Positions 9,052-62,191 of a DNA stretch of 64,000 bases are shown here, in pieces. Below the pieces are notes generated by a model that saw only the letters and a program-made list of their open reading frames with translations, made no database searches and had not been told where the DNA came from. This stretch comes from Mycobacterium sp. UM_CSW. GTDB lineage: Bacteria; Actinomycetota; Actinomycetes; Mycobacteriales; Mycobacteriaceae. The stretch is from NCBI RefSeq assembly GCF_000455205.1, contig NZ_AUWQ01000028.1, positions 1 through 64,000 of the forward strand, given 5' to 3'. Position 1 is the stretch's first letter; each line of letters opens with the position of its first letter. The position numbers and the translations under genes were made by a program.

Positions 9052-9911
9052 GCACCGCCGCAGTCAAACTATCGGTGGCCACACCCGTGGTGACCATGCT
9101 GCCCGGTAGCAGCGAATGGACCCGAGACGCGTCCATCGAGGATCTCGCCCAGATCGCCGAGGCCGCAGACCGACTCGGCTATCACCACCTGACGTGTAGC
9201 GAGCACATCGCGCTGCCCGCCGCCGAGCGCTCCCGCCGCGGTGCCCGCTACTGGGATCCGTTGGCCACGCTGGGCTACCTCGCGGCGCGCACCCGGCGGA
9301 TCCGGTTGGCCACCCACGTGCTGGTGCTCGGGTACCACCATCCGCTCGAGATCGCCAAGCGCTACGGCACCCTGGACAAGGTCAGCAACGGCCGGCTCAT
9401 CCTCGGGGTCGGGGTGGGCAGCCTCAAGGAGGAGTTCGAGCTCCTGGGCGCCCCGTTCGACGACCGCGGGCCACGCGGTGACGACGCGCTGCGCGCGCTT
9501 CGCGCCTCGCTGTCCGTCCCCGAACCCGCCTACCATGGCGAGTTCTATTCGTTCGGTGGGATGGTCGTCGATCCCTGCGCGGTCCAGGAACGCGTCCCCA
9601 TCTGGATCGGCGGGCGTACGCTGCGATCGCTGCGCCGCGCCGCGACCCTGGCCGACGGCTGGGCCCCCTTCAACGTCAGCCCGCAGCAGGTCCGAGAATG
9701 GCTGGGCCGTTTCGACCTTCCGCCCGGCTTCGAGGTCGTGCTGCCGCCGTCGGCGCCGCTGGATCCGATCAACGAGCCGGAACGCACCCGCGACGTGCTC
9801 GGCGAGCTCGGCGCGCACGGCGCCACCATCGTCAGCGCGATCTTCAAAGACGCCTCGCTGCAACAGTATCTGGACAATCTGGCGGCGCTCGCGGAACTGA
9901 AAACGTCGTAG
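9048..9911 (+). CDS. LLM-class F420-dependent oxidoreductase
   Basis: 287 residues. Luciferase-like TIM barrel: AEAADRLGYHHLTCSEHI, IRLATHVLVLGYHHPLEIAKRYGTLD, SNGRLILGVGVGSLKEEFELLG and VPIWIGGRT. The TIGR03619-type layout is typical of mycobacterial F420 enzymes. The start ATG overlaps the SDR stop (ATGA) and the next gene follows after 12 bases, so it belongs to the 7466-11062 operon. Which carbonyl or hydroxyl group it acts on cannot be read. Confidence 0.83.
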   Translation: MSTAAVKLSVATPVVTMLPGSSEWTRDASIEDLAQIAEAADRLGYHHLTCSEHIALPAAERSRRGARYWDPLATLGYLAARTRRIRLATHVLVLGYHHPLEIAKRYGTLDKVSNGRLILGVGVGSLKEEFELLGAPFDDRGPRGDDALRALRASLSVPEPAYHGEFYSFGGMVVDPCAVQERVPIWIGGRTLRSLRRAATLADGWAPFNVSPQQVREWLGRFDLPPGFEVVLPPSAPLDPINEPERTRDVLGELGAHGATIVSAIFKDASLQQYLDNLAALAELKTS

Positions 9912-9923
9912 GAAAGGGCTTCC

Positions 9924-10337
9924 ATGTCGAAGGCGATCCGAGTGCTGGCCATGCTTTTGTTGGTGTCCGGGGCCCATGCGATAGTTTCCCCGGCCACGGC
10001 CACCGGCACGCCATCATGCGTCGGCCTGTCGATATGCCCGCCACCGCCGCCGGACGCCGACGGCAACCCGGGATGTTATTACGCCGACGGCTGGCAGGGC
10101 TCGGGCGCCGGCATCGAGGTGTGGTACTTCCATGAGCCGCAGAACATTTCGAAGCCCGACAAGGTCACGGCCCTGGTACGCAAGAAGGACGGCACCACCG
10201 AGTCTCAGGACGCCAACATCGAAGCCGGGCAACAGGTGCACCGCTTCGAGTTCGCGACCATCGACAAGTCGGCCGTCCAAGAGGTGTTGCTCACCAGCAG
10301 CAGCGGCCGGTGCTTCGTGATCGGACCGGGCACGTGA
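9924..10337 (+). CDS. Small secreted protein of unknown function
   Basis: 137 residues. MSKAIRVLAMLLLVSGAHAIVSPATATG is a Sec signal peptide; cleavage near residue 27 leaves about 110 residues. The mature protein begins with a Pro run (CPPPPPDADG) and contains four cysteines (two near the start, one in GCYYADGW, one in GRCFVIG), suggesting two disulfides. I do not recognise a family. Its place inside an operon of cytosolic enzymes is odd: either it carries or senses the exported substrate, or the operon was assembled secondarily. The stop overlaps the next GTG (GTGA). Confidence 0.7.
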   Translation: MSKAIRVLAMLLLVSGAHAIVSPATATGTPSCVGLSICPPPPPDADGNPGCYYADGWQGSGAGIEVWYFHEPQNISKPDKVTALVRKKDGTTESQDANIEAGQQVHRFEFATIDKSAVQEVLLTSSSGRCFVIGPGT

Positions 10338-11062
10338 ACCGTGTCAAGGCAGGCTTTTTCAGCCTTACCCCTCCCGCACCCGACGACGACGGCAGCTATC
10401 TGCGTTGGCACCTGCTGGATCACATGCCCGAGCAATACCAACTGCCGGGCATCGTCCACGGGCTGCGCTGGATCGCCGACGGCGCCTACCCCGAACACCG
10501 CCTGGCGGCCGACGGGCCGCTGGCGCAGGTGGGCAACGTGGTGCACTACCTGATCGGTGACCCCGTTGAACAAACCTTCGACGACTTCGTCGCGCTCGGC
10601 CGCTCGCTGCGGGAAAACGGCCGCTTTCCCGTCACGCGCCCGTCGCTACAGGTGGCCGGCCTGCGGCTGCTGCAGTGGCAGGCCGCGCCGCACGCCCTCA
10701 TCTCGCCCGAGGTGGTGCCCTTTCGGCCGCACCGCGGCATCGTGCTGATCATCGAGGAACCCACCGAAGGCCGCCCCGACACGTGGCTGCAATGGCTGCA
10801 CGCCGAACACCATCCGGCGCTGCTCGCCGCGCCCGGCACCGCCGGCGCTTGGACTTTCGGTACGAGTACCGGGTGGAGCCACCTACCCGCGGGGTGGCTG
10901 ACGGACCACCAATACACCACCGTCGTTTACCTCGACGCCGACCCGCTCACCACCGTCGACGCGCTGGCTCCGCTCATCGAGGAACGGTGGCGGTCGGGCG
11001 CGGTGCGGCCCCTGTTCGCGGGACCGTTACGAACGATGGTCAGCTGGGAAGCGTGGCCGTGA
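10334..11062 (+). CDS. EthD-like dimeric alpha/beta-barrel protein
   Basis: 242 residues from the GTG at 10334, overlapping the previous stop. It looks like two tandem ferredoxin-like halves: LRWHLLDHMPEQYQLPGI near residue 22 and LQWLHAEHHPALLAAPGT near 155 share the W-x-H-x3-H-x-P-x5-PG pattern of EthD-type proteins. EthD is an accessory protein of P450-dependent ether degradation, but many relatives have no known role. As last gene of the operon it may bind or process an intermediate. It is probably cytosolic; there is no signal or membrane segment. Confidence 0.62.
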   Translation: MNRVKAGFFSLTPPAPDDDGSYLRWHLLDHMPEQYQLPGIVHGLRWIADGAYPEHRLAADGPLAQVGNVVHYLIGDPVEQTFDDFVALGRSLRENGRFPVTRPSLQVAGLRLLQWQAAPHALISPEVVPFRPHRGIVLIIEEPTEGRPDTWLQWLHAEHHPALLAAPGTAGAWTFGTSTGWSHLPAGWLTDHQYTTVVYLDADPLTTVDALAPLIEERWRSGAVRPLFAGPLRTMVSWEAWP

Positions 11063-11161
11063 ACTGCGCGGATCCGCCGTTCGGCGGGTCGCCAGAGGGA
11101 TGAGACCTCGCCGCAACGCACGGCCTCTATAGTCCTTCTGAGCTCTAGCAAAGGACGTGAG

Positions 11162-11665
11162 ATGACCAGTTCGCGACTCGTTCTCGCCGCCGCGCTCGGC
11201 GTGATCGCCGTGGCGGCCACCCTGCCGGCCTGCTCGAGCAAGAGCGGCCAGCCATCTTCTGCCACGAGCACCAGCGCGGCCCCGCCGAGCACGACCGTCA
11301 TGATCGGCGGCAACAAACACACGATCATGACGAAGGTCGAATGCACCGCGACGGCGGCACAACCCAGCGCCACACCCGCGGAGTCCGGGGACCTGACCAC
11401 CCGCATCAGCGTTCACGACGATTCGGCTTCGGTGTCGCTGGCGCTGTCGGACGAAAAGCCGCCGAGCGTCGACGGCTTTTCCCTGTCGCTCAAGGCGGGA
11501 TCCGGTGAGTACCAGCTGCCCTACCAGGCGCCCCAGTCCGCGACCCAGGTGCAGGCGACGAAGGACGGCAAGAGTTACACCGTGACCGGGACGGGCCAGG
11601 GAGTGTCGCCCAATCAGGGCGACGTGCACCAGGTGACGTTCGGGATTCACGTGACCTGCCCCTGA
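11162..11665 (+). CDS. LpqH-type lipoprotein
   Basis: 167 residues. A signal peptide ends in the lipobox LPAC, with Cys24 as lipidation site, then a Ser/Thr/Ala-rich linker (to about 45) that could be glycosylated as in the 19-kDa antigen. The globular part has VMIGGNKHTIMTKVECT, GSGEYQLPYQ and GKSYTVTGTGQGV, the pattern of the LpqH/LppE family, with two conserved cysteines (in KVECT and HVTCP) forming a likely disulfide. These are cell-envelope lipoproteins; LpqH is a TLR2 agonist. AAAGGACGTGAG precedes ATG 11162, and TATAGT at 11128-11133 is a possible -10. Confidence 0.83.
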   Translation: MTSSRLVLAAALGVIAVAATLPACSSKSGQPSSATSTSAAPPSTTVMIGGNKHTIMTKVECTATAAQPSATPAESGDLTTRISVHDDSASVSLALSDEKPPSVDGFSLSLKAGSGEYQLPYQAPQSATQVQATKDGKSYTVTGTGQGVSPNQGDVHQVTFGIHVTCP

Positions 11666-50675: not shown

Positions 50676-51683
50676 ATGGTCGGCTGGCTGGACAGGCTGC
50701 AGCGACGGAACCGCCCCGTCGGCGTAACCATCGCCGTCATCTATAAATACCTGGACGACCAAGGCGGCTATCTGTCCGCCTTGATCACCTACTACGGGTT
50801 CGTGTCGTTGTTCCCACTGCTGCTCCTGCTGACGACCGGGCTGGGGGTGATTCTGGCCGGACGCCCCGACCTGCAGGAGCAGGTGCTGCACAGCACGTTG
50901 AGCCAATTCCCCGTCATCGGAAGCCAATTGCATCAGCCCGAGGGGCTCAGCGGCGGGACCGTCGCGGTGGTCGTCGGCATCGTGGGAGCACTGTATGGCG
51001 GCCTGGGCGTCGGGCAGGCGGTGCAGAACGCGATGGACTCGGTGTGGGCCGTGCCAAGGAACAAGCGCCCCAACCCAATACTGTCGCGCGTGCGCAGCGC
51101 GCTGTTGTTGTTGGTTCTCGGTTCGGCTGCCGTCGCGTCCACCGTCCTGTCCGCGATCGGCCAGGCCACGGGCTCCCTGGGATTCGTCGGAAAGCTCGGC
51201 CTCACGCTCGCCGCCATCGCGATCAACGGGCTGATCTGCCTGGTGGCGTTTCGCGTGACCACCGCCCGCCAGCTCAGCTACCGCCAGGTTTGGCCGGGAG
51301 CGCTTGCGGCGGCGCTCATTTGGCAGATCCTGCAGCGGTTCGGCGCCGGTTACGTCGCGCACACGGTCAAGACGGCCAGCGCCACCAACAGCGTCTTCGC
51401 TTTGGTGCTGGGGCTGCTGGCGTTCTTGTACCTCATCTCGACGACGCTGGTCCTGTGCGCCGAGATCAACGTCGTTCTCGTGGAGCGGCTATACCCGCGC
51501 GCATTGCTCACCCCGTTCGTCGAGGACGCGGATCTCACGGAGGCCGACCGGAAGACCTACGCCAAGAGGGCAAAAGCCGAGCGGGTGAAGGGCTTTCAGC
51601 GAGTCAGCGTCAGGTTCCGCGACCTGACCCGCAAGGAAGGCGATCAGCAGACGCCGGCGGTCCGTAGCCGGCGCGCCGGCTAG
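50676..51683 (+). CDS. YihY/BrkB-family membrane protein
   Basis: 335 residues, six predicted helices. YLSALITYYGFVSLFPLLLLLTTGLGVIL and GYGLSGGTVAVVVGIVGALYGGLGVGQAVQNAMDSVWAV fit the YihY/virulence-factor-BrkB family; SATNSVFALVLGLLAFLYLISTTLVLCAEIN is helix 5-6. Function unclear (once thought RNase BN). The C-terminal 55 residues are cytosolic and basic. Its stop overlaps that of the DUF3072 gene by four bases (CTAG). Confidence 0.85.
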   Translation: MVGWLDRLQRRNRPVGVTIAVIYKYLDDQGGYLSALITYYGFVSLFPLLLLLTTGLGVILAGRPDLQEQVLHSTLSQFPVIGSQLHQPEGLSGGTVAVVVGIVGALYGGLGVGQAVQNAMDSVWAVPRNKRPNPILSRVRSALLLLVLGSAAVASTVLSAIGQATGSLGFVGKLGLTLAAIAINGLICLVAFRVTTARQLSYRQVWPGALAAALIWQILQRFGAGYVAHTVKTASATNSVFALVLGLLAFLYLISTTLVLCAEINVVLVERLYPRALLTPFVEDADLTEADRKTYAKRAKAERVKGFQRVSVRFRDLTRKEGDQQTPAVRSRRAG

Positions 51684-51895
51684 TGGGCGCCCCGTCCCGT
51701 CTGTTGTTGCAGTTCATCGATCAGCTCCGAGGCTTGCGCTTTCGTCATGTCGTCGGGAACGTCGCGACCCGCCTCCTGGGCCAGCGTATGTAGATAGCTG
51801 CGCTGGGGTCCCGTCATCGGCTCGTCGCCGGTTACCCACTCGGACCTGTCCTTCTCGGGTGTCTCGCGGGGCGCCTGTTGCGTGTCGTCAGTCAT
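51680..51895 (-). CDS. DUF3072 small protein
   Basis: 71 residues, hydrophilic. WVTGDEPMTGPQRSYLHTLAQEAGRDVPDDMTKAQASELIDELQQQTGR is the DUF3072 signature, a short helical protein often near stress genes in actinobacteria. Soluble, no Cys. ATG 51895 lies a few bases from a SigF-like -10. Converges with the YihY gene. Confidence 0.8.
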   Translation of the reverse strand: MTDDTQQAPRETPEKDRSEWVTGDEPMTGPQRSYLHTLAQEAGRDVPDDMTKAQASELIDELQQQTGRGAH

Positions 51896-51904
51896 GCACT
51901 AGAG

Positions 51905-51930
51905 ATAACCGTCGCACGCGTGTTCGAAAC
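51905..51930 (-). promoter_or_regulatory. SigF-like promoter for the DUF3072 gene
   Basis: On the minus strand GTTT (51930-51927), 16 bases, GGTTAT (51910-51905). One mismatch to the SigF -10 GGGTAT. ATG 51895 lies nine bases further, so the leader is very short. Together with 50597 it gives both genes of the convergent pair the same type of promoter. Confidence 0.45.
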
Positions 51931-51983
51931 GTGTCGCCGGAGAAAGTTCGCCGTTGCGCTCGGCGCCGGGTCGTGGCCGGCCG

Positions 51984-53060
51984 TCAGGCGTCGATCACCA
52001 CGCGGTCACTTTTCGCCCGGGACACGCAGACCAGCATTTCGTCGTCGCCTTCCACGGTTCGGCCCCGGCGATCGACCTGCCCCCCAAGCACCTTGACCTT
52101 GCATGTCCCGCAGAACCCTTGCTGGCACGAATACGCGGTCGCCGGTTCACGGTCAAGCATGACGGCGAGCGCCGACCGGTTCGCCGGCACGCTGAGCACC
52201 CGTTTGGATCGCGCCAACTCGAGCTCGAACGGCGCACCATCGACGACCGGCGGCGGGCTGAACCGCTCGTAGTGCAGTGGCGCGTCAACGTGAGAGTCCC
52301 GGGCCGCACGAACCGCTTCGAGCACGGCGGTTGGCGCGCAGATATACACGGCCGTCGTCGTGCCCGCGCCGGCCAGCAGCTCGTCGGTGGTCGGGAAGCG
52401 GCCCCGCTCGTCGTCGGCCCAGACGGTGACCCGATCGGCGTCTACCGCCAGCACCTCGTCGAGCAGCGGCATGTGGTCGCGTCGCCTGCCGGCATAGATT
52501 GCGCGCCAGTTGATTCCGTGCTGATGAGCCAGCCGGATCATGGGCAGAATGGGCGTCACCCCGATGCCGCCGATGATGAACAAGATGTCACGTTCGTCGG
52601 TGACGAGATAGAAGGCGTTGCGCGGGCCCTCGAACTCCAACGTGTCGCCCACGTCGAACGCGTCGTGCATCTCGATGGAACCGCCGCCGCCGTCGGCGAT
52701 CCGGCGCACGGCGATGCGGTAGTCGGTGCGCCGCCCGGGCGGACCGCACAGCGAATACTGCCGGCGGCGACCCGAGGGCAGCCGAACGTCGATGTGCGCA
52801 CCGGGAGTCCAGGACGGCAGCAACCCGCCTTGGGGATCGGCCAACGTCAATGCGACCACGTCGGGCGTGAGAAGCTCACGTTTAATCACCGTCGCGGTGA
52901 TGGTCCGTTGCACCGGCGATATCCGCGACGGAGTCCATCGCGACGCCGACGCGAAGCCGCCGAAGAGCGAACCCACACCCCACAACGCCGTGTAGCTGCG
53001 GTCGCGCTTGCGGCGACCGTAGAGGTCGACAGGTCTGCTCGCCCAAATGCTCTCTGCCAC
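51984..53060 (-). CDS. Ferredoxin reductase with C-terminal 2Fe-2S domain (PDR/VanB-like)
   Basis: 358 residues from GTG 53060 (TTG 53066 has GGAA too close). About 45 N-terminal residues precede the FAD domain. RRQYSLCGPP is the flavin-contact RxYS; FIIGGIGVTPILPMIR is the NAD-binding motif; YSCQQGFCGTCKVKVLGG with CxxxxCxxC, and a fourth Cys in LVCVS, form the plant-type 2Fe-2S cluster. It passes electrons from NAD(P)H to a monooxygenase or desaturase. Fourth and last gene of the FAAL operon, so it probably powers the di-iron protein encoded two genes upstream. Confidence 0.87.
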   Translation of the reverse strand: MAESIWASRPVDLYGRRKRDRSYTALWGVGSLFGGFASASRWTPSRISPVQRTITATVIKRELLTPDVVALTLADPQGGLLPSWTPGAHIDVRLPSGRRRQYSLCGPPGRRTDYRIAVRRIADGGGGSIEMHDAFDVGDTLEFEGPRNAFYLVTDERDILFIIGGIGVTPILPMIRLAHQHGINWRAIYAGRRRDHMPLLDEVLAVDADRVTVWADDERGRFPTTDELLAGAGTTTAVYICAPTAVLEAVRAARDSHVDAPLHYERFSPPPVVDGAPFELELARSKRVLSVPANRSALAVMLDREPATAYSCQQGFCGTCKVKVLGGQVDRRGRTVEGDDEMLVCVSRAKSDRVVIDA

Positions 53061-53070
53061 AGTCAATTTC

Positions 53071-53976
53071 CTATGCCTGCCGAACTCCGGAGGTCAGCTT
53101 GACCCACTCGCCCGTATACCGGGCGACGACGTCGGGATGCGAGGCGACCACCCAGTGGCCGCCCTCGATAGAGACGATCCTGCCCTCGGGCGGTATCGAG
53201 CCGGTGAACCGCTGCAGGGCAGGGCTGACGAAATAGTCTTTGCGAGCCACCAGCACCTGCACCGGAACTTCGGTCTGCGGCAGCTTCTCCGGCGGCGCCA
53301 AAATCGGCGCAGGCATGTTGGCACGGTACAGGTTGAGCCCGTTGAGGTAGTCATCGATCGAGCGGATCGACGCCGCACGCCGTTGCCCGCGGCGCCTGGA
53401 CCGGCCGATAAGCTCAACCGCCTCAAAGACTTTCACGGTCACCCGGGACCGGATCGCCACCTCGGGCGCACCCGGACACAGAAAGAACCAGATATACGAC
53501 GAAGCCAGAACCTGTTTGACGACGTCGGGCACGGCGCGGGGCGTACGTGCCGACCGCAGAAACCGGCCCGCGTAGTTCAGGTGCGGCCCGGAGATCGACG
53601 TGAACGAGGCGATTTTGCCCATCACCGTGTCGTCGGTGACCGCGGCCCAACCCTGAATCGATCCCCAGTCGTGGGCCAACAGGTGGACCTCGTCGACACC
53701 CAGGCTGTCGATCACCGAGTCGATATCATCGACCAGCTGGTTGAGGTGATAGCCTGATCGATTTGCAGGCGTTGAGGATTCGCCGGCGCCACGCACGTCG
53801 AACGCGACGAAGTTGTACCGGTCGGCGAGTCCCCAGGCGACGCCGTCCCATACGTGGTGATTATCCGGGTAACCGTGGATCGCCAATATGGTCGGCCGCT
53901 CGGGGTCGATCCCGGTGTGCGCGTGCACGGCGAGCGCCACCCCGTCGGAGGCGGTCACGGTGCTGGTATAGGTCAT
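53071..53976 (-). CDS. Alpha/beta hydrolase
   Basis: 301 residues from ATG 53976. ILAIHGYPDNHHVWDGVAWGL, FDVRGAGESSTP, HDWGSIQGWAAV with an Asp at the nucleophile position (LLAHDWGS) and GHWVVASHPD for the base. The Asp nucleophile makes it epoxide hydrolase or dehalogenase-like, and WGS after it resembles DhmA. Third gene of the FAAL operon, 19 bases after the ferritin-like gene and 10 before the reductase gene. An epoxide or ester of the lipid product is a natural substrate guess. Confidence 0.8.
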   Translation of the reverse strand: MTYTSTVTASDGVALAVHAHTGIDPERPTILAIHGYPDNHHVWDGVAWGLADRYNFVAFDVRGAGESSTPANRSGYHLNQLVDDIDSVIDSLGVDEVHLLAHDWGSIQGWAAVTDDTVMGKIASFTSISGPHLNYAGRFLRSARTPRAVPDVVKQVLASSYIWFFLCPGAPEVAIRSRVTVKVFEAVELIGRSRRRGQRRAASIRSIDDYLNGLNLYRANMPAPILAPPEKLPQTEVPVQVLVARKDYFVSPALQRFTGSIPPEGRIVSIEGGHWVVASHPDVVARYTGEWVKLTSGVRQA

Positions 53977-53995
53977 GCTCGAGTTCTCCGCGGGC

Positions 53996-54904
53996 TCAGT
54001 GCGACGCCCGCGCGGCGGGCGATCTGGCCAAGTAGTCGACCGCACGTCCCACCCCACCCAGTTGGGAAGGGTGAAAGCTCGGCCGGTAGTACGCGCCGAT
54101 GACGCCGAGGAACTCAAAGGGACCGGGTACCAATCCCCGTCGCGCCGCGCGGAAATAATCCCGCCAGCGCGGTTTGGTCCCCGGCGGCAGGTTCGGGTCG
54201 ACGGAGTACATGAACCGGACGCCGCGGACGAACAACCACAACAGCGCCGGCGTGATCAGTAGCTGGGTCCGTACCTGCCGCCAGTAGCCCGCTCGCAGAT
54301 GCTTCATGGTGTCGAACGCGACGGCCTTGTGTTCGACTTCTTCCGCGCCGTGCCAGCGCAGCAAGTCCAGCATCACCGGGTCGGTGCCCAAGGCGTCGTG
54401 TTGCGGGGTGTCGAGGACCCATTCACCCAGGATGGCGGTGTAGTGCTCGAGGGCCGCCACCATCGAAACCCGTTCGAGCAACCAGCTTTCCCGTCGCCGC
54501 CGACTCCACTGGGGCCGGTCGCCAATGAGCCGCTGGAACAGCCAGGCCATCTGGTCGGTAAACGGTGTCACGTCGATGCCCTTGGCGGCGAAGTGCCCGA
54601 GCACCCCCGCGTGCGCCTGGGAATGCATCGCCTCCTGGCTGATGAACCCCTGCACGTCCAACCGCAGCTGATCGTCCTTGATCAGCGGCAGGGTGCTCTT
54701 GAACGCCTCGACGATGAACTCCTCGCCCGCGGGCAGCAGCAGGTGCAGGACGTTGCAGAAATGGGTGGTGAAGGGCTCGTTGGGCACGTAGTAGAACGGC
54801 AGCGTCGCCCAGTCGAAGTCGACGTCACGCGCCTGCAGAACGATCCGCTCGTGATCGAGGGATGCGTCGTGCGGGCCCGTCGCCTGGTCATCGACCGTGA
54901 ACAT
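53996..54904 (-). CDS. PF10118-type ferritin-like di-iron protein
   Basis: 302 residues. I take ATG 54904, since GGGGGG lies six bases upstream; GTG 54931 would overlap the FAAL gene stop. LPAGEEFIVEAFKSTLP, ISQEAMHSQAHAGVL, VSMVAALEHYTAILGEW and HGAEEVEHKAVAFD give two EXXH-like pairs (E-x2-H in QEAMHSQAH; E-x2-H in EEVEH), as in ferritin-like di-iron carboxylate proteins. The family is annotated as metal-dependent hydrolase, but a di-iron oxygenase/desaturase is equally possible. The C-terminal 90 residues include one hydrophobic helix near 217 (LLITPALLWLFVRGV). Second gene in the operon. Confidence 0.75.
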   Translation of the reverse strand: MFTVDDQATGPHDASLDHERIVLQARDVDFDWATLPFYYVPNEPFTTHFCNVLHLLLPAGEEFIVEAFKSTLPLIKDDQLRLDVQGFISQEAMHSQAHAGVLGHFAAKGIDVTPFTDQMAWLFQRLIGDRPQWSRRRRESWLLERVSMVAALEHYTAILGEWVLDTPQHDALGTDPVMLDLLRWHGAEEVEHKAVAFDTMKHLRAGYWRQVRTQLLITPALLWLFVRGVRFMYSVDPNLPPGTKPRWRDYFRAARRGLVPGPFEFLGVIGAYYRPSFHPSQLGGVGRAVDYLARSPAARASH

Positions 54905-54923
54905 GGTGGACCCCCCAACGTCA

Positions 54924-57900
54924 CTAGGCACTGCGTTGCGCCTCCCCCTCAGCCTCGGTGATCAGGCCCTCCTGACGCAAGAACCGCCACAGGTTCTCGA
55001 CCGTCTTCGTCAGGGCCGGCTCCCGCAGATGAACCTTGGCCAGCGTGCGAGCATGCCGGTATTGGGTGTTGTCGTAACGCTTTTCCCGCATCGCCGCGAT
55101 CTTGTCCGCCGACCGGGTGAGGAAATCGACCAGCGGATAGAGCTGATCGCGCGGCGTGCACCGGCGGTTCAGCTGCTCGGTGAAGGACGGGATGTCGTAG
55201 TAGTCGAAGCGGTAGCCGTAGCGTTCTGACAGGATCCGCGTGATGTCGGTCAGGTTGTAGTAGTCATCCGCGGTCATGTTAAAGACGCTGCCGGCCTCGG
55301 GGGGGAGGTCCATCAGCGCGACAATGTGATCGGCGATCAGGTCCGCCGGCAGCATGCTGAGTTGGTTGAGCGCGTTGACGGCCACTCCGTGCTCGATCAT
55401 GAACGCGGTCAGGCGCACCAGGATGTCGTCCTCGCTGCCGAAACCCGCGCGGGTAGGCGAGATCAGCGAGGGCCGGAAGATGCGCACGTCGAGCCCTTGC
55501 CGCTGCGCTGCCAGGACCAATTGCTCGGCGACCCACTTGGTCTGCGAGTAGCCGAAGTCCAGACCGCTCATCTTGGTGTTGGCATCCCATTCCCCGACCA
55601 CCGGCTCGGTGCTCCAGCCGTAGATGAACGTGCTGGAGACCAGGTGGAAGGTCTTGCGGTGAGCGGTCATCGCCAGGCGCAAAAGCTCATGTGTGCCAAT
55701 CACATTGGCCGCGCGCAGCGCGTCGTAGGTCCTGACGTAGTTGACCAAGGCGCCGTTGTGTACGATCGCGTCGACGCTTTCGGCCAGTCGCAGGAACGCC
55801 GCCTCACCGATGCCCAGGTTGGGCTCGGCGAGGTCACCGCAGATCACTCGCACCCGCGCCCGGACCTCGGCTTCCAGAGCCGGGGACCACAGCTGGGCGC
55901 GGCGTAGCGAGGCGACGATCCGGTCCAGCCCGTGGGCCTCGTCCGTGGCGCGGACCAACGCGTGGATCGTGTAGGAAGTCTGGCCCAGCAGGCTGTTCAC
56001 CAAGAACGGTCCCAGGAATCCGGTCGCCCCGGTGAGCAGGATGTCGCTCACCGGCCCCGATTGCGCGATCGGCAGCGCCGGCAGGGGCAGCCGCGCATCG
56101 GCGCGCATCTGCTCGATCTCCTGCGCCTCGTACCTGGCGGAGATCTGGTCCAGCGCCTGCCGCAGTGCCTCCACGGGCTGCCCGGACCGATCCCCGAATT
56201 GCCGCATGAGCCGGAAGAACTCGGCGACGGTCAGGCGCTGAAGCAGGCGCGTGTTGACCTCCTCGGCCAGCTCCCCCGCCCCGTGCTCTTCCAGTAGCGC
56301 CTGTAGGTCCGCGCGCAGCTCCGCCAGTGCCAGCGAGTCAATCCCGAGATCGGCGAAGGAGCAATCTTCGTACCCGGTCAGGTCGTAACTCTCGATGAGA
56401 TTTTGGAAGCGCGCGAGCGGGCCCGCGCTGGCGTCCGGCCCGTTGTGGGTGTGGTGGGCCGACTGGTTAACCCAGCTCGCCAGCGCGGGCAGCTTGCCGT
56501 CCAGCCACAGCTGGCGGGTCTGCGAGCGCCTGATCTTTCCCGAGGTGGTCTTGGGGATGCTGCGCGGCGGCGCGAACACGATCGTGTGCGGATCGATGTG
56601 GCCGTGCCGGCGGATCGCTCGCGCCAGGGCCTTGCCGTCCGGGAGGTCATTACCATCCCGCACCTCGGCGACCACGATCAGCGCTTCCTGCTCCTCGGAC
56701 TCCTCGCGTTCGACCGCGAATGCGGCGACGCAGCCGTGCCGGACTTGCGGGGCGGATCGTTCCACGACGGCCTCGATGTCCGACGGGTAGCAGTTGACGC
56801 CCCGGACGATGATCAGGTCCTTGGTCCGCCCGCAGACGAACAGCTCGCCCTCGTAGAGGAAGCCGAGATCGCCCGTCCGCAAATAGGTGTGCTCGTCATC
56901 GCCGGCGATGCGCGCGCCGAAGGTTTCCGCGCTGGCCTCGGGGCGATGCCAGTAGCCGCCCCCCTTGGACGGTCCGTCCAGCCAGATCTCGCCGACCTTG
57001 CCCTGGCCCAGCGACTGCCGGGATTCGGGGTCGACGATGCGAACGACGTTCCCGTCGGCGGGCTTGCCGCTGCTCACCAGGGGCGTCTGGTTGTTGTTCT
57101 CCGGCAGGGCCTTTTCAACCCGAACCACGTTCTGCTGCAGAGCCCGCTTGTTCACGGCCAGCGTCTGGCGACCCCGCACGGACACGATCAGGGTGTTCTC
57201 GGCCAGGCCGTAGGCGCCGGTGACGGCGTCGGGCCGCAGTCCATAGGGGGCGAAGCGCTCCCGGAAGCGGGTAAACGTCTTGGCCCGCAACGGCTCTGCC
57301 CCGATGAGCATCGACTCGAGGCTGCTCAAATCGATGCCGTCGAGATGCGAAGCCGGAAGCTTGTCCTCACGCAGGCAGTACTCGAGCGCGAAGTTCGGCG
57401 CGGGCGTGCGGGTGGCGCGCACCTCGCTGATGAGCCGCAGCCAGGATGCGGGCCGCTTCAGGAAGTCCTCCGGTGACATCGCGTGCGTGCTGCCACCGAT
57501 CACCACGATGAACAGGTAGGCGGAGATCAAGCCCATGTCGTGGTGCTGCGGCAGCCAGCTGACCACCACCTCGCTGTCGGGGAAGGCCGACGCGTTGGCG
57601 ATGACGTTGGCGTGGGTCACCACCACACCCTTGGGATCGTTGGTGGAACCGGATGTGTACTGCAGGAAGAGCACTCGGCCGGGCTTGTCGGCGACAGGAG
57701 CGCCGCCGAAGTTACGCGTCCGGTCGGTCGCGACCCACGGGAGCTCCGGAAGCCTCTCGGCGTCAGGCCAAGGCATCGCGCCCTGCCGGTGGTCGAGCAG
57801 CTGACGGAAGTCGGACTCGAGTTGCTTGGTCGACAGCACCGCCTTGGCTTGGCAGTCCCGGGCGATGAAGCTCAGCTTCGCCAGCCCCGACTCGAAAGCC

Positions 57901-58187
57901 ATGGGCAGCGGGGGGCTTACCGGGACGGCGATGACGCCGAGGCGCGCGCAGGCGTAGAACGCGGCCACCATCTCCAGACCGGGCGTGTAGACCAGCAGTG
58001 CTCGATCTCCCGGCCGGAGCCCGGCTTCGGTGGACAGGTATGCGGCCAGCTCGCGCGTCCGCTCCGCGAAGCTCCGGAATGTGTAGTGCTCGAGCTCGTG
58101 GCCGTCGGCATCGACGAACCGGAAGAGGGTCTGGTCCGGTTTCCGCGCTTCCCACATCTGCAGGTAGTCGATCAGGGTCTCCGTCAC
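54924..58187 (-). CDS. FAAL-ACP-thioester reductase (three-domain carboxylic acid reductase-like)
   Basis: 1087 residues, GTG start with GGAAGGGGAG seven bases upstream. Domain 1 (1-570): fatty acyl-AMP ligase; YTSGSTNDPKGVVV at 177-190, WLPQHHDMGLI at 211, GRTKDLIIVRGVNCYPSDIE at 453 typical of FAALs, and SGKIRR with the catalytic Lys551. Domain 2 (about 590-665): acyl carrier protein, LGIDSLALAEL with the phosphopantetheine Ser618. Domain 3 (about 712-1075): thioester reductase, GATGFLG at 720-726 for NADPH and a Y-x3-K pair in FGYSQTKW. It would activate a fatty acid, load it on its own ACP and release it as aldehyde or alcohol. No condensing domain exists, so the acid must come from outside. 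Confidence 0.92.
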   Translation of the reverse strand: MTETLIDYLQMWEARKPDQTLFRFVDADGHELEHYTFRSFAERTRELAAYLSTEAGLRPGDRALLVYTPGLEMVAAFYACARLGVIAVPVSPPLPMAFESGLAKLSFIARDCQAKAVLSTKQLESDFRQLLDHRQGAMPWPDAERLPELPWVATDRTRNFGGAPVADKPGRVLFLQYTSGSTNDPKGVVVTHANVIANASAFPDSEVVVSWLPQHHDMGLISAYLFIVVIGGSTHAMSPEDFLKRPASWLRLISEVRATRTPAPNFALEYCLREDKLPASHLDGIDLSSLESMLIGAEPLRAKTFTRFRERFAPYGLRPDAVTGAYGLAENTLIVSVRGRQTLAVNKRALQQNVVRVEKALPENNNQTPLVSSGKPADGNVVRIVDPESRQSLGQGKVGEIWLDGPSKGGGYWHRPEASAETFGARIAGDDEHTYLRTGDLGFLYEGELFVCGRTKDLIIVRGVNCYPSDIEAVVERSAPQVRHGCVAAFAVEREESEEQEALIVVAEVRDGNDLPDGKALARAIRRHGHIDPHTIVFAPPRSIPKTTSGKIRRSQTRQLWLDGKLPALASWVNQSAHHTHNGPDASAGPLARFQNLIESYDLTGYEDCSFADLGIDSLALAELRADLQALLEEHGAGELAEEVNTRLLQRLTVAEFFRLMRQFGDRSGQPVEALRQALDQISARYEAQEIEQMRADARLPLPALPIAQSGPVSDILLTGATGFLGPFLVNSLLGQTSYTIHALVRATDEAHGLDRIVASLRRAQLWSPALEAEVRARVRVICGDLAEPNLGIGEAAFLRLAESVDAIVHNGALVNYVRTYDALRAANVIGTHELLRLAMTAHRKTFHLVSSTFIYGWSTEPVVGEWDANTKMSGLDFGYSQTKWVAEQLVLAAQRQGLDVRIFRPSLISPTRAGFGSEDDILVRLTAFMIEHGVAVNALNQLSMLPADLIADHIVALMDLPPEAGSVFNMTADDYYNLTDITRILSERYGYRFDYYDIPSFTEQLNRRCTPRDQLYPLVDFLTRSADKIAAMREKRYDNTQYRHARTLAKVHLREPALTKTVENLWRFLRQEGLITEAEGEAQRSA

Positions 58188-58745
58188 GGAGTCACTCCCC
58201 TTCCAGGTTGGTGGCCCGATTTAGCCGAAATCAAAAGAAGAACTGCTTACGTCGTAATTCACTCACGGTAGCGCCGTTAATCGGTGTCTCGCAAAGCCAT
58301 TTCGACGCCACACACGGATTTCACAGGTACGCGTGACGCATCCCACAGCGAGGACATTTTCTCGTGAGCCAGGAATTGTTTATGTGAATACTGGTTTCAG
58401 TAGTTCAGTGCACCCTTGCTCCTCGATAAACCCTGGTGGAGCGACGATACGCGAATACTGACCTACGGACACGCGACGTTCCGTACGCAACGACCCAGCC
58501 CGGGTGTGGCCGACCCGTGACAGCATTCTGATAAACCGGCCAGAAAGGGCTCCCTTGCAAATTCGCCGCTATTGCGGAGTTGCTTTTCCAAACACGCCTA
58601 AGACCGGCCGAATGACGACCGCAATTCGACGTGTGAGCGAGGTGGGCGCAGCGGCGACGGCGACCCGGGCGGGGCTCAGAAGCTACGGATATACTGAAAC
58701 TGACTTACTGATCAACCGTCAACGGCTACGACGAGAGAGTCACCC
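58188..58745. other. Gene-poor region, lower GC
   Basis: 558 bases with no convincing gene. It holds the FAAL operon promoter on the left, then a stretch with repeated short words: ATACTG near 58387, 58456 and 58692, and GATAAACC at 58429 and 58530. The segment ACTGA occurs three times in about 25 bases just before the 58746 gene. TATACT (58690-58695) is a possible -10 for that gene. The repeats could be binding sites for its product. An open frame 58504-58749 exists but looks spurious. Confidence 0.4.
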
Positions 58746-59006
58746 ATGAGCACTCCGGACCGCATGGCCGCGGCGCCGACCGATCGCTTCGCGGTCGGGC
58801 GCACACGTAATCCCCGCACCCGACGAACGGTTGACCTTACGCCCGCCCAGCATCGAGCTCTCGACATCTGGCAGCGAGAGGCCGCCGACCGCCTCGGCGT
58901 CGCTCGCGTCACTGGGCAAGAGGTTCTCGCCACGCTCGTCGACCAACTGCTCAACGACCCCAAACTCGCGGCCCAGATCACGCGCACCATCCAGGCCAAG
59001 CGGTAG
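58746..59006 (+). CDS. Small DNA-binding-like protein (possible RHH/partition type)
   Basis: 86 residues, very basic in the first half. TRRTVDLTPAQHRALDIWQREAADRLGV then RVTGQEVLATLVDQLLNDPKLA reads as a beta-strand followed by two helices, the order of a ribbon-helix-helix or ParB-like small DNA-binding domain, of the type seen on mycobacterial plasmids next to parA. No parA or rep gene is nearby, so it may be a chromosomal relic. Function is not certain. Repeated ACTGA words lie just upstream. Confidence 0.55.
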   Translation: MSTPDRMAAAPTDRFAVGRTRNPRTRRTVDLTPAQHRALDIWQREAADRLGVARVTGQEVLATLVDQLLNDPKLAAQITRTIQAKR

Positions 59007-59015
59007 CGCCCGTCG

Positions 59016-60089
59016 TCAGGATTCCAAACGCCGCGAATCGATTCCGCGTGCCACCGCGTCACGCAGCGGCGAGGCGTCGAGCGCGGCCGATAGTTGGCGA
59101 CCGACCTGTGCGATGCGGATTCGGGGTCCGGCGCGGGCGACGAGCCGGACGATGCCGTCAAAACGCTCGCCGTCGATGATCGGCGACAGCGGCTCGTCCT
59201 CGGCCTCGATGACCATCTCTTCGCCGTTGACATCCCGCACCCGATCACCGGGAAGCGTTCCGTTGCGGAGCGCCGAGGGCAGGTTCGCGATGATCCTCGA
59301 CGGCCTCAGGTACCCGGCTTGGAAGTGCAGCGCGCCAGGTTGAGACGCTTTCGGGAATAGCCGGAAACCTGCGCCGATGTGCAGGTCGATCGCACCGGCG
59401 TGCAGCAATGTGTGTGTCCGCGTGGGGACCTCGACGCCGTCGATCGCGACACGCGCGCGCGTCGGCGCGAACAGGCGGGTCGCATAGTTGGACTTGTTCG
59501 AGTGTCCGGGGACCACCTTGTTGGTCACATAGTCGCCAAACGAGCGGGCCATCACCCGAACGACGTCCGCCCGGCCATGCGTGTGGTTGTCGTAGTACTT
59601 GTCGTAGAACCGGTTGCCGACGCCCCCGGCGGCCAGGCCAAAGCAGAGCCGGTAAAACTTTGCGCCGTCCGCGGTTTCGCCGTCGAGCTCCAGGGTGTCC
59701 AGAAACGTTTCCGGCGGAGGCTGATTCGCCTCGGCCGCGGCGACCAGCGCGCGCAAAACCGCTTCGGGCCGGCCTCGCACCCGCGCCTTGCGCGCGACGG
59801 CGTTGACGCTGCCGCCATTGCTCGGCACGAACGCCGGCCAACGCTCCGGATCGTCGACGCAGTGCCGGGTTTCGTTGATCAACCAGTTCAGCGAACCGTC
59901 GCCGCCGTCGCTGATCAGGTGGCTGACCCGCGGGTACAGCTGCCCGACGGCGTTGCGCAGCTCCTCCACCGAGGTAGTTTCGTGCACCTCGCCCCACGGG
60001 CCGACGATGCGGCGCATGTCGGCGGCGACATCGTGGCGCGCGGCACGGTTCTTGCGCGCAAGCGGATTGACGATGACCCCTAGATACAT
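59016..60089 (-). CDS. Diacylglycerol/lipid kinase family protein
   Basis: 357 residues. GVIVNPLARKNR is the nucleotide-binding start of the DAGK_cat domain, ISDGGDGSLNWLIN is the GGDG(T/S) catalytic motif, FVPSNGGSVNAVAR the second conserved loop, and NGEEMVIEAEDEPLSPIIDGE the C-terminal beta-sandwich strand. It uses ATP to phosphorylate diacylglycerol or a related lipid at the membrane. Not adjacent to related lipid genes; ends nine bases from the 58746 gene stop. Confidence 0.82.
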   Translation of the reverse strand: MYLGVIVNPLARKNRAARHDVAADMRRIVGPWGEVHETTSVEELRNAVGQLYPRVSHLISDGGDGSLNWLINETRHCVDDPERWPAFVPSNGGSVNAVARKARVRGRPEAVLRALVAAAEANQPPPETFLDTLELDGETADGAKFYRLCFGLAAGGVGNRFYDKYYDNHTHGRADVVRVMARSFGDYVTNKVVPGHSNKSNYATRLFAPTRARVAIDGVEVPTRTHTLLHAGAIDLHIGAGFRLFPKASQPGALHFQAGYLRPSRIIANLPSALRNGTLPGDRVRDVNGEEMVIEAEDEPLSPIIDGERFDGIVRLVARAGPRIRIAQVGRQLSAALDASPLRDAVARGIDSRRLES

Positions 60090-60265
60090 CTGGGGCTCCC
60101 CGACTCACCCCGGCCGCAACGCGTACGTGGGATTTCGCTGGCCATCTCCGCGACGATACCCGCGATGGCGATGTGGGCGCGCCGACGCGAATCTCCGCAC
60201 GGTCGCGGTGGAGCAAAAGCATTGCCCGGGACGGCCCCTGCCGCTTCGCGGCTAGGGTGGCTGCC

Positions 60266-61135
60266 ATGTCAGGTTGGACCGCGGCGGACCTGCCGTCGTT
60301 TTCGGGACGGACCGCCATCGTCACCGGTGCCAGCGGCGGGCTGGGCGAGGTGACCGCGCGGGAGTTGGCGCGGGTCGGCGCCCACGTCATCCTGGCGGTG
60401 CGCAACACCGACAAGGGTGACGCCGCGGCCGCGCGAATGACCGGCCAAGTCGAGGTGCGCCGGCTCGACCTGCAAGACCTCTCGTCGGTGCGACACTTCG
60501 CCGATCAGGTCGACAGAGTCGACGTACTCGTCAATAACGCCGGCATCATGGCGACGAAGCGCGCGGTCACCGTCGACGGGTTCGAGGGCCAGATCGGCAC
60601 CAATCACCTCGGTCATTTCGCGTTGACCAACCTGTTGCTGCCCAGGCTGACCGATCGCGTGGTGACGGTGTCCTCGCTGCTGCATCACATCGGCTACATC
60701 AGCCGCAAAGACCTGAACTGGCAGTCCCGGCCGTACTCGGCGTGGCTGGCCTACGGCCAGTCGAAGCTGGCCAACCTGCTGTTCACCAGCGAGCTGCAGC
60801 GGCGCCTGGATGCGGCCGGTTCTCCGCTGCGCGCGCTGGCCGCGCACCCCGGTTGGTCGCACACGAACCTGCAGGGCAATTCGGGTCGCAAGTTCGGCGA
60901 CGCGGCGGTGTTGGCCGTCGACCGCCTCGTGTCCACCGACGCCGACTTCGGTGCCCGGCAAACGTTGTATGCCGCATCGCAGGACCTGGCGGGCGATACG
61001 TTCGTCGGCCCTCGGTTCGGCCTGTACGGTCGCAGCCAGCCGACCTGGCGAAATTGGCCGGCCAGGCGCGCAACCAGTGCCGCCGCGCTCTGGGAGCTGT
61101 CCGAACAGCTCACCGGCACGAAATTCCCGCTCTGA
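60266..61135 (+). CDS. Short-chain dehydrogenase (retinol dehydrogenase/WWOX-like)
   Basis: 289 residues from ATG 60266. TGASGGLGE cofactor motif, RLDLQDLSSVRHFAD, NNAGIMA, catalytic Ser in VVTVSSLLHHIG and Y-x3-K in YGQSKLANLLF. The N-terminal arginine after strand 2 (AVRNTDKG) favours NADPH. The extended layout with AHPGWSHTNLQG resembles mycobacterial retinol-dehydrogenase-like SDRs acting on lipids. Alone on its strand except for the DMT gene 138 bases on. Confidence 0.85.
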   Translation: MSGWTAADLPSFSGRTAIVTGASGGLGEVTARELARVGAHVILAVRNTDKGDAAAARMTGQVEVRRLDLQDLSSVRHFADQVDRVDVLVNNAGIMATKRAVTVDGFEGQIGTNHLGHFALTNLLLPRLTDRVVTVSSLLHHIGYISRKDLNWQSRPYSAWLAYGQSKLANLLFTSELQRRLDAAGSPLRALAAHPGWSHTNLQGNSGRKFGDAAVLAVDRLVSTDADFGARQTLYAASQDLAGDTFVGPRFGLYGRSQPTWRNWPARRATSAAALWELSEQLTGTKFPL

Positions 61136-61273: not shown

Positions 61274-62191
61274 ATGTCGGATACGAACCTGGCGGTTCTG
61301 CTCGCCCTGTGCGCCGCGCTGGCATCCGCGGTTGGCAATGTGATCCGGCAGCGCTCCGCGCAGGAGGTCACCGAAAAACAGGTCGGTCATCTGACGTTGT
61401 TCGGCATGTTGCTGCGCGACAAGCGTTGGTGGCTAGGCGGTTTGGGCGACATCTCGAGTTACCTCCTGCTGGCCTGGGCCCTCGACGAGGGATCGGTGCT
61501 GTTGGTGATGTCGCTTCAGGTGACGGCGCTGTTGTTCGCGCTGCCGATCTACGCGCGGGTGACCCGTCATCGGGTGAGCCGCGGCGAATGGTTGTGGGCG
61601 ATAGTGCTGGCCGCGGCATTGGCGGTCATGATCGCGGTCGGGCAACCGGCGGGCGGCCACGAGCGCGGCTCGCTCGCAGCCTGGCTGGTGGTGGCGATCG
61701 TGATGGGCCCGCCGCTGCTGCTGTTCTTGCTGGGCGCCCGGATCTGGTCGAACCGTCCGGCCGCGGCATTGCTGTTGGCGGCGGTGGCCGGTTCGTTGCT
61801 GGCGGTGTTCTCGGTGCTGATGAAGGGCGTCGTCGACGTCATCGAACACCACGCGGGAGACCTGTGGCACACGCCCGAGCTGTATGCCTGGCTGTTCACC
61901 GGAGTCGCCGGGATGATCATCCACCAATCGGCCTATCGCGCCGGAGCGCTCACCGCGTCGCTGCCGACGATCATCGTCGCCAAACCCGTCGTGGCCGGGG
62001 TGCTCGGAATCACCGTGCTGGCCGAGACTTTGAACGCCGACGGCACAGGTTGGTTCCTGCTGGCGGTGGCCGCAGTGGTGGTGATCGTTGCGACCATCGG
62101 TCTGGCTCGCGGTGAGGCCGCGACGATGGCGGCCGGCGCCGGGCGCGACGTGAAGCTCACCGACCGGCCAAAGGCGGCCTCCCAAGCCTGA
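61274..62191 (+). CDS. DMT-superfamily (EamA-like) membrane protein, copy 2
   Basis: 305 residues, paralogue of 29577-30455. IRQRSAQEVTEKQVGHLTLFGMLLRDKRWWLGGL near the start and SVLMKGVVDVIEHHAGDLWHTPELYAWLFTG in the middle correspond to the same segments in copy 1, and TIIVAKPVVAGVLGITVLAETLNADG to the second repeat end. About ten helices. Role uncertain. GTGAGGAGGT lies upstream of ATG 61274. Converges with the EmbR-like gene. Confidence 0.75.
   Translation: MSDTNLAVLLALCAALASAVGNVIRQRSAQEVTEKQVGHLTLFGMLLRDKRWWLGGLGDISSYLLLAWALDEGSVLLVMSLQVTALLFALPIYARVTRHRVSRGEWLWAIVLAAALAVMIAVGQPAGGHERGSLAAWLVVAIVMGPPLLLFLLGARIWSNRPAAALLLAAVAGSLLAVFSVLMKGVVDVIEHHAGDLWHTPELYAWLFTGVAGMIIHQSAYRAGALTASLPTIIVAKPVVAGVLGITVLAETLNADGTGWFLLAVAAVVVIVATIGLARGEAATMAAGAGRDVKLTDRPKAASQA

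What the first reader, a model, noticed from the sequence alone, without database searches (positions are those of the whole stretch)
51984..58187. Four-gene operon: FAAL-ACP-reductase plus ferritin-like, hydrolase and ferredoxin reductase
The genes run on one strand with gaps of 19, 19 and 10 bases. Seen: a 1087-residue enzyme with an adenylation domain that loads acyl-AMP (FAAL type), an ACP with Ser618 and a reductive-release domain; a PF10118-type di-iron protein; an Asp-nucleophile alpha/beta hydrolase; a 2Fe-2S reductase. Inference: a fatty acid is activated, reduced to an aldehyde or alcohol, then oxygenated or cleaved by the di-iron protein using electrons from the reductase, with an epoxide or ester intermediate opened by the hydrolase. 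I know of no described mycobacterial pathway with this set.
Basis: partly seen in the sequence, partly recalled or inferred. Interest (0 to 1): 0.75.

Follow-up and report, generated by a model that had tools for sequence, protein, structure and literature searches.

The report
Seven-gene mycobacterial lipid-making island
A conserved block of genes in many slow-growing mycobacteria looks like an assembly line that loads a fatty acid, oxidises its chain with a little-studied iron enzyme and releases it in reduced form, giving a lipid that has yet to be identified.

Summary
In detail: four intact minus-strand genes at 51984-58187 (FAAL-ACP-thioester reductase, PF10118 protein, Asp-nucleophile hydrolase, 2Fe-2S reductase) with gaps of 19, 19 and 10 bases. 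The synthetase and the matching PF10118 gene occur in the same 23 of 96 same-genus genomes, linked in all 23; the catalytic residues checked are invariant except two adenylation-domain positions. The unit is larger than reported: a lipid-kinase-like gene, an SDR and a DMT transporter upstream track the same 23 genomes. The PF10118-hydrolase-reductase trio is an older cassette that also occurs without the synthetase; its FAAL-linked copies form one clade in each of three gene trees. PF10118, named 'predicted metal-dependent hydrolase', has an AurF-like di-iron ligand pattern and a phthalate-dioxygenase-type reductase partner, so it is probably an oxygenase; the hydrolase has the epoxide-hydrolase residue set and is EphD-like. 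Best reading: an ACP-bound fatty chain is oxygenated (epoxide, then diol) and released reductively. Substrate, order of steps and product are not shown; no structure prediction was available.

The parts
54924..58187 (-). FAAL-ACP-thioester reductase, 1087 aa: FAAL about residues 3-572, ACP Ser618, reductase about 716-1061 (Y880, K884)
   Evidence: Pfam and NCBIfam, solved FAALs, residues
53996..54904 (-). PF10118 protein, 302 aa, putative di-iron oxygenase; E61, E91xxH94, E153, H185xxxE189xxH192
   Evidence: Pfam, conservation, weak AurF match
53071..53976 (-). EphD-like epoxide hydrolase, 301 aa, without the SDR domain that part of the orthologues carry
   Evidence: SDR fusion in others:
51984..53060 (-). 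Phthalate-dioxygenase-reductase-type flavin/2Fe-2S reductase, 358 aa
59016..60089 (-). Lipid-kinase-like protein (DAGK_cat, GGDGS motif), 357 aa, upstream on the same strand
   Evidence: found in the same 23 of 96 genomes
60266..61135 (+). SDR oxidoreductase, 289 aa, divergent
   Evidence: copies at 79% or more in the same 23 of 96 genomes
61274..62191 (+). DMT-family transporter, 305 aa, divergent
   Evidence: NCBIfam NF038012; copies at 67% or more in the same 23 of 96 genomes

Best explanation
A lipid-modification island of slow-growing mycobacteria. Shown by sequence: a FAAL-ACP-thioester reductase with its core residues; a PF10118 protein with a conserved ferritin-like metal-ligand pattern; a dedicated phthalate-dioxygenase-type reductase; an EphD-like epoxide hydrolase; and a co-inherited lipid-kinase-like protein, SDR and DMT transporter. 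Inferred: the FAAL adenylates a fatty acid and loads it on the built-in ACP (Ser618). The PF10118 protein activates O2 with electrons from the reductase and oxygenates the chain, most simply by epoxidising a double bond. The hydrolase opens the epoxide to a diol, which an SDR may oxidise. The reductase domain releases the chain as aldehyde or alcohol. The kinase-like protein may phosphorylate a hydroxyl and the DMT protein may move the product. Weakest points: substrate, order of oxygenation and release, and the roles of the last three genes.
For: Linkage and co-occurrence in the same 23 of 96 genomes. Catalytic residues invariant in 55, 54, 52 and 57 sequences of the four proteins, apart from K186 (54 of 55) and Y326 (49 of 55) of the synthetase. 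PF10118 paired with the reductase in 15 of 20 sampled loci at 40% identity or more, 0 of 9 more distant ones, and in 19 of 22 cassette-B loci. AurF-like ligand spacing. Reductase best matches are phthalate dioxygenase reductase and similar reductases. Hydrolase best matches are epoxide hydrolases. FAAL-linked copies of all three genes form single clades. EphD, the fused-hydrolase relative, acts on epoxymycolates (PMC7998700, passages).
Against: No fold could be predicted; similarity of PF10118 to AurF is marginal and no solved relative was found. The hydrolase is missing in L099 and in 4 of 22 cassette-B loci, one of them broken, so an epoxide step is not obligatory. The cassette occurs without the synthetase, and synthetase relatives outside mycobacteria occur without the cassette (0 of 13 loci). 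Co-occurrence within one genus is confounded by common descent. The FAAL substrate, and whether the reductase domain gives aldehyde or alcohol, could not be read from sequence.
Confidence: 0.5

Rival explanations
1. Two modules side by side: the PF10118-hydrolase-reductase cassette is a general oxidising or detoxifying unit for free or CoA-bound lipids, and the synthetase makes its own aldehyde or alcohol; no shared intermediate.
For: The cassette is older and occurs alone in the genus and in other Actinobacteria; a second synthetase copy in one genome has no cassette (L103).
Against: Gaps of 19, 19 and 10 bases, and the same order in 54 of 60 named mycobacterial loci, 4 of the other 6 being cut by contig ends; the same 23 of 96 genomes hold both.
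Confidence: 0.25
2. Hydrocarbon synthesis: the synthetase makes a fatty aldehyde and the PF10118 protein, an analogue of cyanobacterial aldehyde-deformylating oxygenase, shortens it to an alkane.
For: A reductive-release enzyme beside a ferritin-like protein and a reductase; the analogy is recalled.
Against: Cassettes without a synthetase; seven-ligand pattern with a third histidine, whereas I recall two histidines in the cyanobacterial enzyme; an epoxide hydrolase has no place in it.
Confidence: 0.1
3. PF10118 is what its name says, a metal-dependent hydrolase, and the reductase serves another enzyme.
For: Family name; Rv2777c is called a putative metal dependent hydrolase in PMC5637355 (passage).
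Against: Ferritin-like ligand pattern; the sub-threshold matches include AurF, Rubrerythrin and Ferritin_2, besides unrelated models such as Cbl_N; pairing with the reductase.
Confidence: 0.05
4. N-oxygenation of an amine, as AurF and CmlI do (recalled), on an amine made from the released aldehyde.
For: AurF-like ligand spacing.
Against: No aminotransferase among the seven genes; the ligand pattern does not fix the substrate.
Confidence: 0.04

Closest known systems
Mycobacterial FAAL-started lipid synthesis (FadD32, FadD28 and others)
   Same: FAAL activates a fatty acid for a carrier protein; NCBIfam models FadD32 3.9e-93 and FadD28 2.9e-73, both far below their cut-offs
   Different: FAAL, ACP and a reductase domain in one chain; no polyketide synthase among the four genes or the three upstream ones
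Carboxylic acid reductase and NRPS reductase domains (MxaA, 4u7w)
   Same: Thioester reductase TIGR01746 254.4 bits, over its cut-off 213.35; MxaA domain 5.6e-53
   Different: Starter domain is FAAL type; CAR model NF041592 only 140 of 1300 bits
EphD (Rv2214c as recalled), epoxide hydrolase-SDR fusion
   Same: Model PRK05855, which I recall covers EphD, at 2.9e-93; SDR fusion kept in part of the orthologues
   Different: 313.4 bits against a cut-off of 455; window copy lacks the SDR; a 33% relative in a 646-codon frame of the same genome (C44) is the likelier EphD
AurF-type di-iron oxygenases (PF11583)
   Same: Same spacing E / ExxH / E / HxxxExxH
   Different: Pfam E 0.032 for the window protein, below cut-off; profile comparison weak
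Phthalate dioxygenase reductase (2pia)
   Same: Matches residues 58-357, E 2.5e-48; FAD_binding_6 and C-terminal Fer2 domains
   Different: About 50 extra N-terminal residues; gene partner is a PF10118 protein

Membership tests
Fatty acyl-AMP ligase (FAAL) | Adenylation core residues | tested here: met
   11 core positions: 9 invariant in 55 of 55; K186 in 54, Y326 in 49
Fatty acyl-AMP ligase (FAAL) | FAAL-type rather than CoA-ligase sequence through the FAAL-specific insertion region | tested here: met
   Aligned end to end with solved FAALs 7r7e and 3kxw with only small gaps near residues 330-375; FadD13 and other CoA ligases align only in separate stretches. FSI defined as in PMC8460268 (passages)
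Fatty acyl-AMP ligase (FAAL) | Makes acyl-AMP and rejects CoA | not testable with these tools
   needs an assay
Thioester reductase domain | Curated model cut-off and GxxGxxG, Tyr, Lys | tested here: met
   TIGR01746 254.4 of 213.35 bits; residues 55 of 55
PF10118 | Gathering score | tested here: met
   246 of 33.2 bits
AurF family (PF11583) | Gathering score | tested here: not met
   13.8 of 29.6 bits: works like it at most, not filed as a member
AurF family (PF11583) | Ligand pattern E / ExxH / E / HxxxExxH | tested here: met
   73-74 of 74 PF10118 proteins; AurF alignment
AurF family (PF11583) | Ferritin-like four-helix fold | not testable with these tools
   structure prediction switched off
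Alpha/beta epoxide hydrolase | Asp nucleophile, HGxP, acid, His, two cap tyrosines | tested here: met
   54 of 54 at each position; alignment to 5ng7
EphD | Curated cut-off of PRK05855 and C-terminal SDR | tested here: not met
   313.4 of 455 bits and no SDR in the window copy; 12 of 54 named orthologues keep the SDR
Phthalate-dioxygenase-reductase type | Flavin, NAD(P) and C-terminal 2Fe-2S domains with four cysteines | tested here: met
   four cysteines in 52 of 52
Diacylglycerol/sphingosine kinase-like | DAGK_cat cut-off and GGDG motif | tested here: met
   28.3 of 23.6 bits, barely over; GGDGS; no solved relative at E 0.1

The most novel reading that the evidence does not exclude
PF10118 is an unrecognised class of AurF-like di-iron oxygenases with its own phthalate-dioxygenase-type reductase and EphD-like epoxide hydrolase, wrongly named a hydrolase and spread through Actinobacteria. 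In slow-growing mycobacteria a duplicate of this cassette was joined once to a FAAL-ACP-reductase, a lipid kinase, an SDR and a transporter, and makes an undescribed oxygenated, reductively released and perhaps phosphorylated lipid.
Probability: 0.35. Interest if true: 0.75.

Novelty: new variant of a known kind. Interest (0 to 1): 0.6.

Why it matters
It gives a testable function to a protein family that Pfam calls a hydrolase, and points to an unassigned lipid in non-tuberculous mycobacteria such as M. colombiense, M. scrofulaceum, M. interjectum and M. gastri (named loci). Because the older copy of the cassette was found in 32 of 96 same-genus genomes (one broken), the same assays would bear on a wider set of genes of unknown role.

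Tried and rejected
Profile comparison of PF10118 with AurF was run both ways and is weak; I rest on the ligand pattern and do not claim membership. PF10118 against solved structures gave no hit or only unrelated weak ones.

Considered and set aside: ester hydrolysis by the hydrolase (it has the epoxide-hydrolase residue set); alkane synthesis; a promoter in the 828-base gap upstream (no sigma-70-like site in 51500-60400, a scan poorly suited to mycobacteria). I also considered that the Baeyer-Villiger-type enzyme at the alanine dehydrogenase locus makes wax-ester mycolates. Copies at 79% or more occur in 12 of 96 genomes, all 12 among the 23 with the island, and in 5 of these 12 the neighbouring cassette B is gone. 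Not pursued.

Paper searches: PF10118; COG3687; FAAL with thioester reductase, with and without mycobacteria; EphD; 'predicted metal-dependent hydrolase' with mycobacteria; Rv2777c; FAAL with reductase domain and others; Rv2776c; Baeyer-Villiger with wax ester. No listing showed this gene set. Six papers were opened: five in passages only, one in passages, abstract and outline. Only open-licence papers are held.

Limits and dropped rows: one search scored 7 candidates per genome and searches scored 3, 16 and 25; the match lists are capped. In one search a similarity filter left 74 rows (window included) out of 138 extracted proteins and the window; one, L182, is a fragment of a broken gene used as it stands. 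In one search, hits under 70% coverage or with stops were dropped unlisted: one of 22 cassette-B loci for PF10118, 3 for the reductase, 4 for the hydrolase; of 16 outgroup loci, 2 for the reductase and 14 for the hydrolase. One search used only rows with 90% coverage. Gene calls came from a simple base-composition script, so genes may be missed, most of all outside mycobacteria.

Full report
What is there. The four genes are real and intact, on the minus strand: 54924-58187 (1087 aa), 53996-54904 (302 aa), 53071-53976 (301 aa) and 51984-53060 (358 aa), with gaps of 19, 19 and 10 bases. Pfam and NCBIfam read them as AMP-binding plus thioester reductase, PF10118, alpha/beta hydrolase, and a Fer2/FAD_binding_6 reductase. 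The ACP serine is residue 618. The ACP is not reported by Pfam at E 1e-3, but the serine is present in 55 of 55 mycobacterial and 11 of 11 distant relatives compared.

Conservation of the linkage. In the 96 genomes searched with the PF10118 protein, copies at 83% or more occur in the same 23. I fetched 23 loci from the 22 other genomes: the order FAAL-PF10118-hydrolase-reductase is seen in 22 of 23, some cut by contig ends; the exception, L052, is a second synthetase copy in G036. A named collection gave 73 loci, 60 of them mycobacterial. Of these, 54 of 60 show the full order; L069, L078, L102 and L104 are cut by contig ends; L099 lacks the hydrolase; L103 is the lone second copy. The two sets share records. 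In a class-level sample of 246 genomes the 5 with a match at E 1e-130 are all of the same genus (three candidates scored per genome). These counts are not independent events, because the species share descent.

More genes belong to it. The upstream lipid-kinase-like gene (59016-60089; DAGK_cat 28.3 bits; GGDGS) is found at E 1e-40 in 23 of 96 genomes, exactly those with the synthetase. The divergent SDR (60266-61135) has copies at 79% or more in the same 23; paralogues at 61-76% are widespread, and 90 of 96 genomes match at the cut-off. The DMT transporter (61274-62191) has copies at 67% or more in the same 23; paralogues reach 63% in synthetase-negative genomes, and 92 of 96 genomes match at the cut-off. 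In G060 and G083 the best DMT copy lies about 16 and 27 kb from the synthetase beside paralogues, and in G083 the SDR lies about 11 kb away, so those assignments are less sure. A second synthetase copy in Mycobacterium sp. E2733 (L103, the same locus as L052) sits beside an MMPL transporter and another DMT gene.

The cassette is older than the link. The own genome holds a second PF10118-hydrolase/SDR-reductase cassette (77, 68 and 79% to the window genes) next to a flavin monooxygenase (L057) with the Baeyer-Villiger fingerprint FxGxxxHxxxWD (motif recalled). This cassette B, 72-80% to the window PF10118, occurs in 32 of 96 genomes, one of them broken. Of 22 such loci examined, 19 have PF10118 plus reductase and 18 have the hydrolase; alanine dehydrogenase was labelled nearby in 10 of the 11 cassette-B loci shown with those labels. 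In a class-level sample, 15 of 20 new PF10118 loci at 40% identity or more have the reductase within the 1.5 kb flank, against 0 of 9 more distant ones, 4 of which have a flavin-monooxygenase neighbour. The 29 loci are those of the best matches; in at least one of the five misses, L208, the flank is too short to show the reductase, which the longer L168 does show. Trees of the three proteins each put the FAAL-linked copies in one clade (SH-aLRT 99, 93, 99; 93 is below the 95 mark) with cassette B not one clade in any (quick LG+G4 trees). The simplest reading is one duplication of the whole cassette. From recalled synteny with alanine dehydrogenase, cassette B should correspond to Rv2777c-Rv2776c of M. 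tuberculosis; PMC5637355 calls Rv2777c a putative metal dependent hydrolase (passage) and PMC10916221 lists Rv2776c in its table of iron-related gene mutations (passage). I did not compare those sequences.

Active sites. Synthetase: 16 of 18 positions invariant in 55 of 55; K186 in 54; Y326 in 49, otherwise F or H. Hydrolase: H34, P37, D103, W104, Y161, Y217, D247 and H274 in 54 of 54. Reductase: four cysteines and four flavin/NAD positions in 52 of 52. PF10118: E61, E91, H94, H98, E153, H154, H185, E188, E189, H192 and H278 in 57 of 57, and in 73 or 74 of 74 in a wider set.

What PF10118 does. The pattern E61 / E91xxH94 / E153 / H185xxxE189xxH192 is that of ferritin-like di-iron enzymes with an extra histidine, as I recall for AurF. 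PF11583 proteins of this and related genomes show E101 / E132xxH135 / E184 / H211xxxE215xxH218. AurF is the only other Pfam model that the window protein touches (E 0.032, not significant); over 16 members AurF is touched by 3, Rubrerythrin and Ferritin_2 by 2 each, and the unrelated Cbl_N also by 2. Profile comparison aligns the HxxxExxH helix but with low probability. No model could be made. With its paired reductase, whose best matches include phthalate dioxygenase reductase, I read it as an oxygenase; this is inference.

What the hydrolase does. Its best solved matches are epoxide hydrolases. PRK05855, a fused hydrolase-SDR model that I recall covers EphD, matches at 2.9e-93, below its cut-off. 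The C-terminal SDR is kept in 12 of 54 named loci with the full order and lost in the window. EphD overproduction lowers epoxymycolates and raises dicarboxymycolates derived from wax-ester mycolates (PMC7998700, passages). An epoxide intermediate is the most economical reading, but loci without the hydrolase exist.

Mechanism. Activation on the FAAL, loading on Ser618, chain oxygenation by PF10118 plus reductase, epoxide opening, optional SDR oxidation, reductive release, then perhaps phosphorylation and transport. The domain content is shown; every reaction is inferred. Synthetase relatives (40-45%) in Caulobacter, Rugamonas, Methyloceanibacter and others have no PF10118 neighbour called in 13 of 13 loci, several of them short. 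P450 and flavin-monooxygenase genes are nearby in L121 and L131 and a flavin monooxygenase in L119 (Pfam) and L132 (motif only). This is against a fixed cassette, but fits a FAAL-ACP-reductase served by exchangeable oxygenases.

Known or new. The ten paper searches listed above in Tried and rejected showed no description of the set. Apart from PF10118 the enzyme classes are known; the combination is not, as far as those searches reach. Hence 'new variant of a known kind'.

Noticed in passing
L057:8154-13427 (own genome, contig C53); L249-L253: A Baeyer-Villiger-type monooxygenase stands upstream of a second PF10118-hydrolase/SDR-reductase cassette. Copies at 79% or more are in 12 of 96 genomes, all among the 23 with the window island; in 5 of these 12 the neighbouring cassette is gone while the monooxygenase stays.
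   Followed up: partly
L054:11163-12425 (G029): The synthetase gene is interrupted by about 1.26 kb holding a DDE transposase-like ORF.
   Followed up: no
L110 (Mycobacterium lepraemurium), match 8001-11246: The synthetase is called as two ORFs (386 and 684 aa), and the kinase-like gene, SDR and DMT gene are not called in the 8 kb upstream.
   Followed up: no
L103:7998-15273 (Mycobacterium sp. E2733): A second, 77% synthetase copy without the cassette, beside an MMPL transporter and a DMT gene; the likely same genome, G036, also has a second kinase-like gene at 65% on another contig.
   Followed up: no
L074:58-4455; similar-sized genes in L070, L077, L101, L108: A peptide-synthetase-like protein (condensation, adenylation, carrier, reductase domains; Pfam run on L074 only) lies beside the DMT gene.
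   Followed up: no
L119, L121, L131, L132: Proteobacterial FAAL-ACP-reductase relatives near flavin monooxygenases and, in L121 and L131, a P450.
   Followed up: partly
L182 (G075, 3.27 Mb genome): The cassette-B PF10118 gene is in two pieces, and hydrolase and reductase genes are not called there.
   Followed up: no
window 58188-59015: An 828-base stretch without a called gene between the kinase-like gene and the synthetase; no sigma-70-like site was found.
   Followed up: partly
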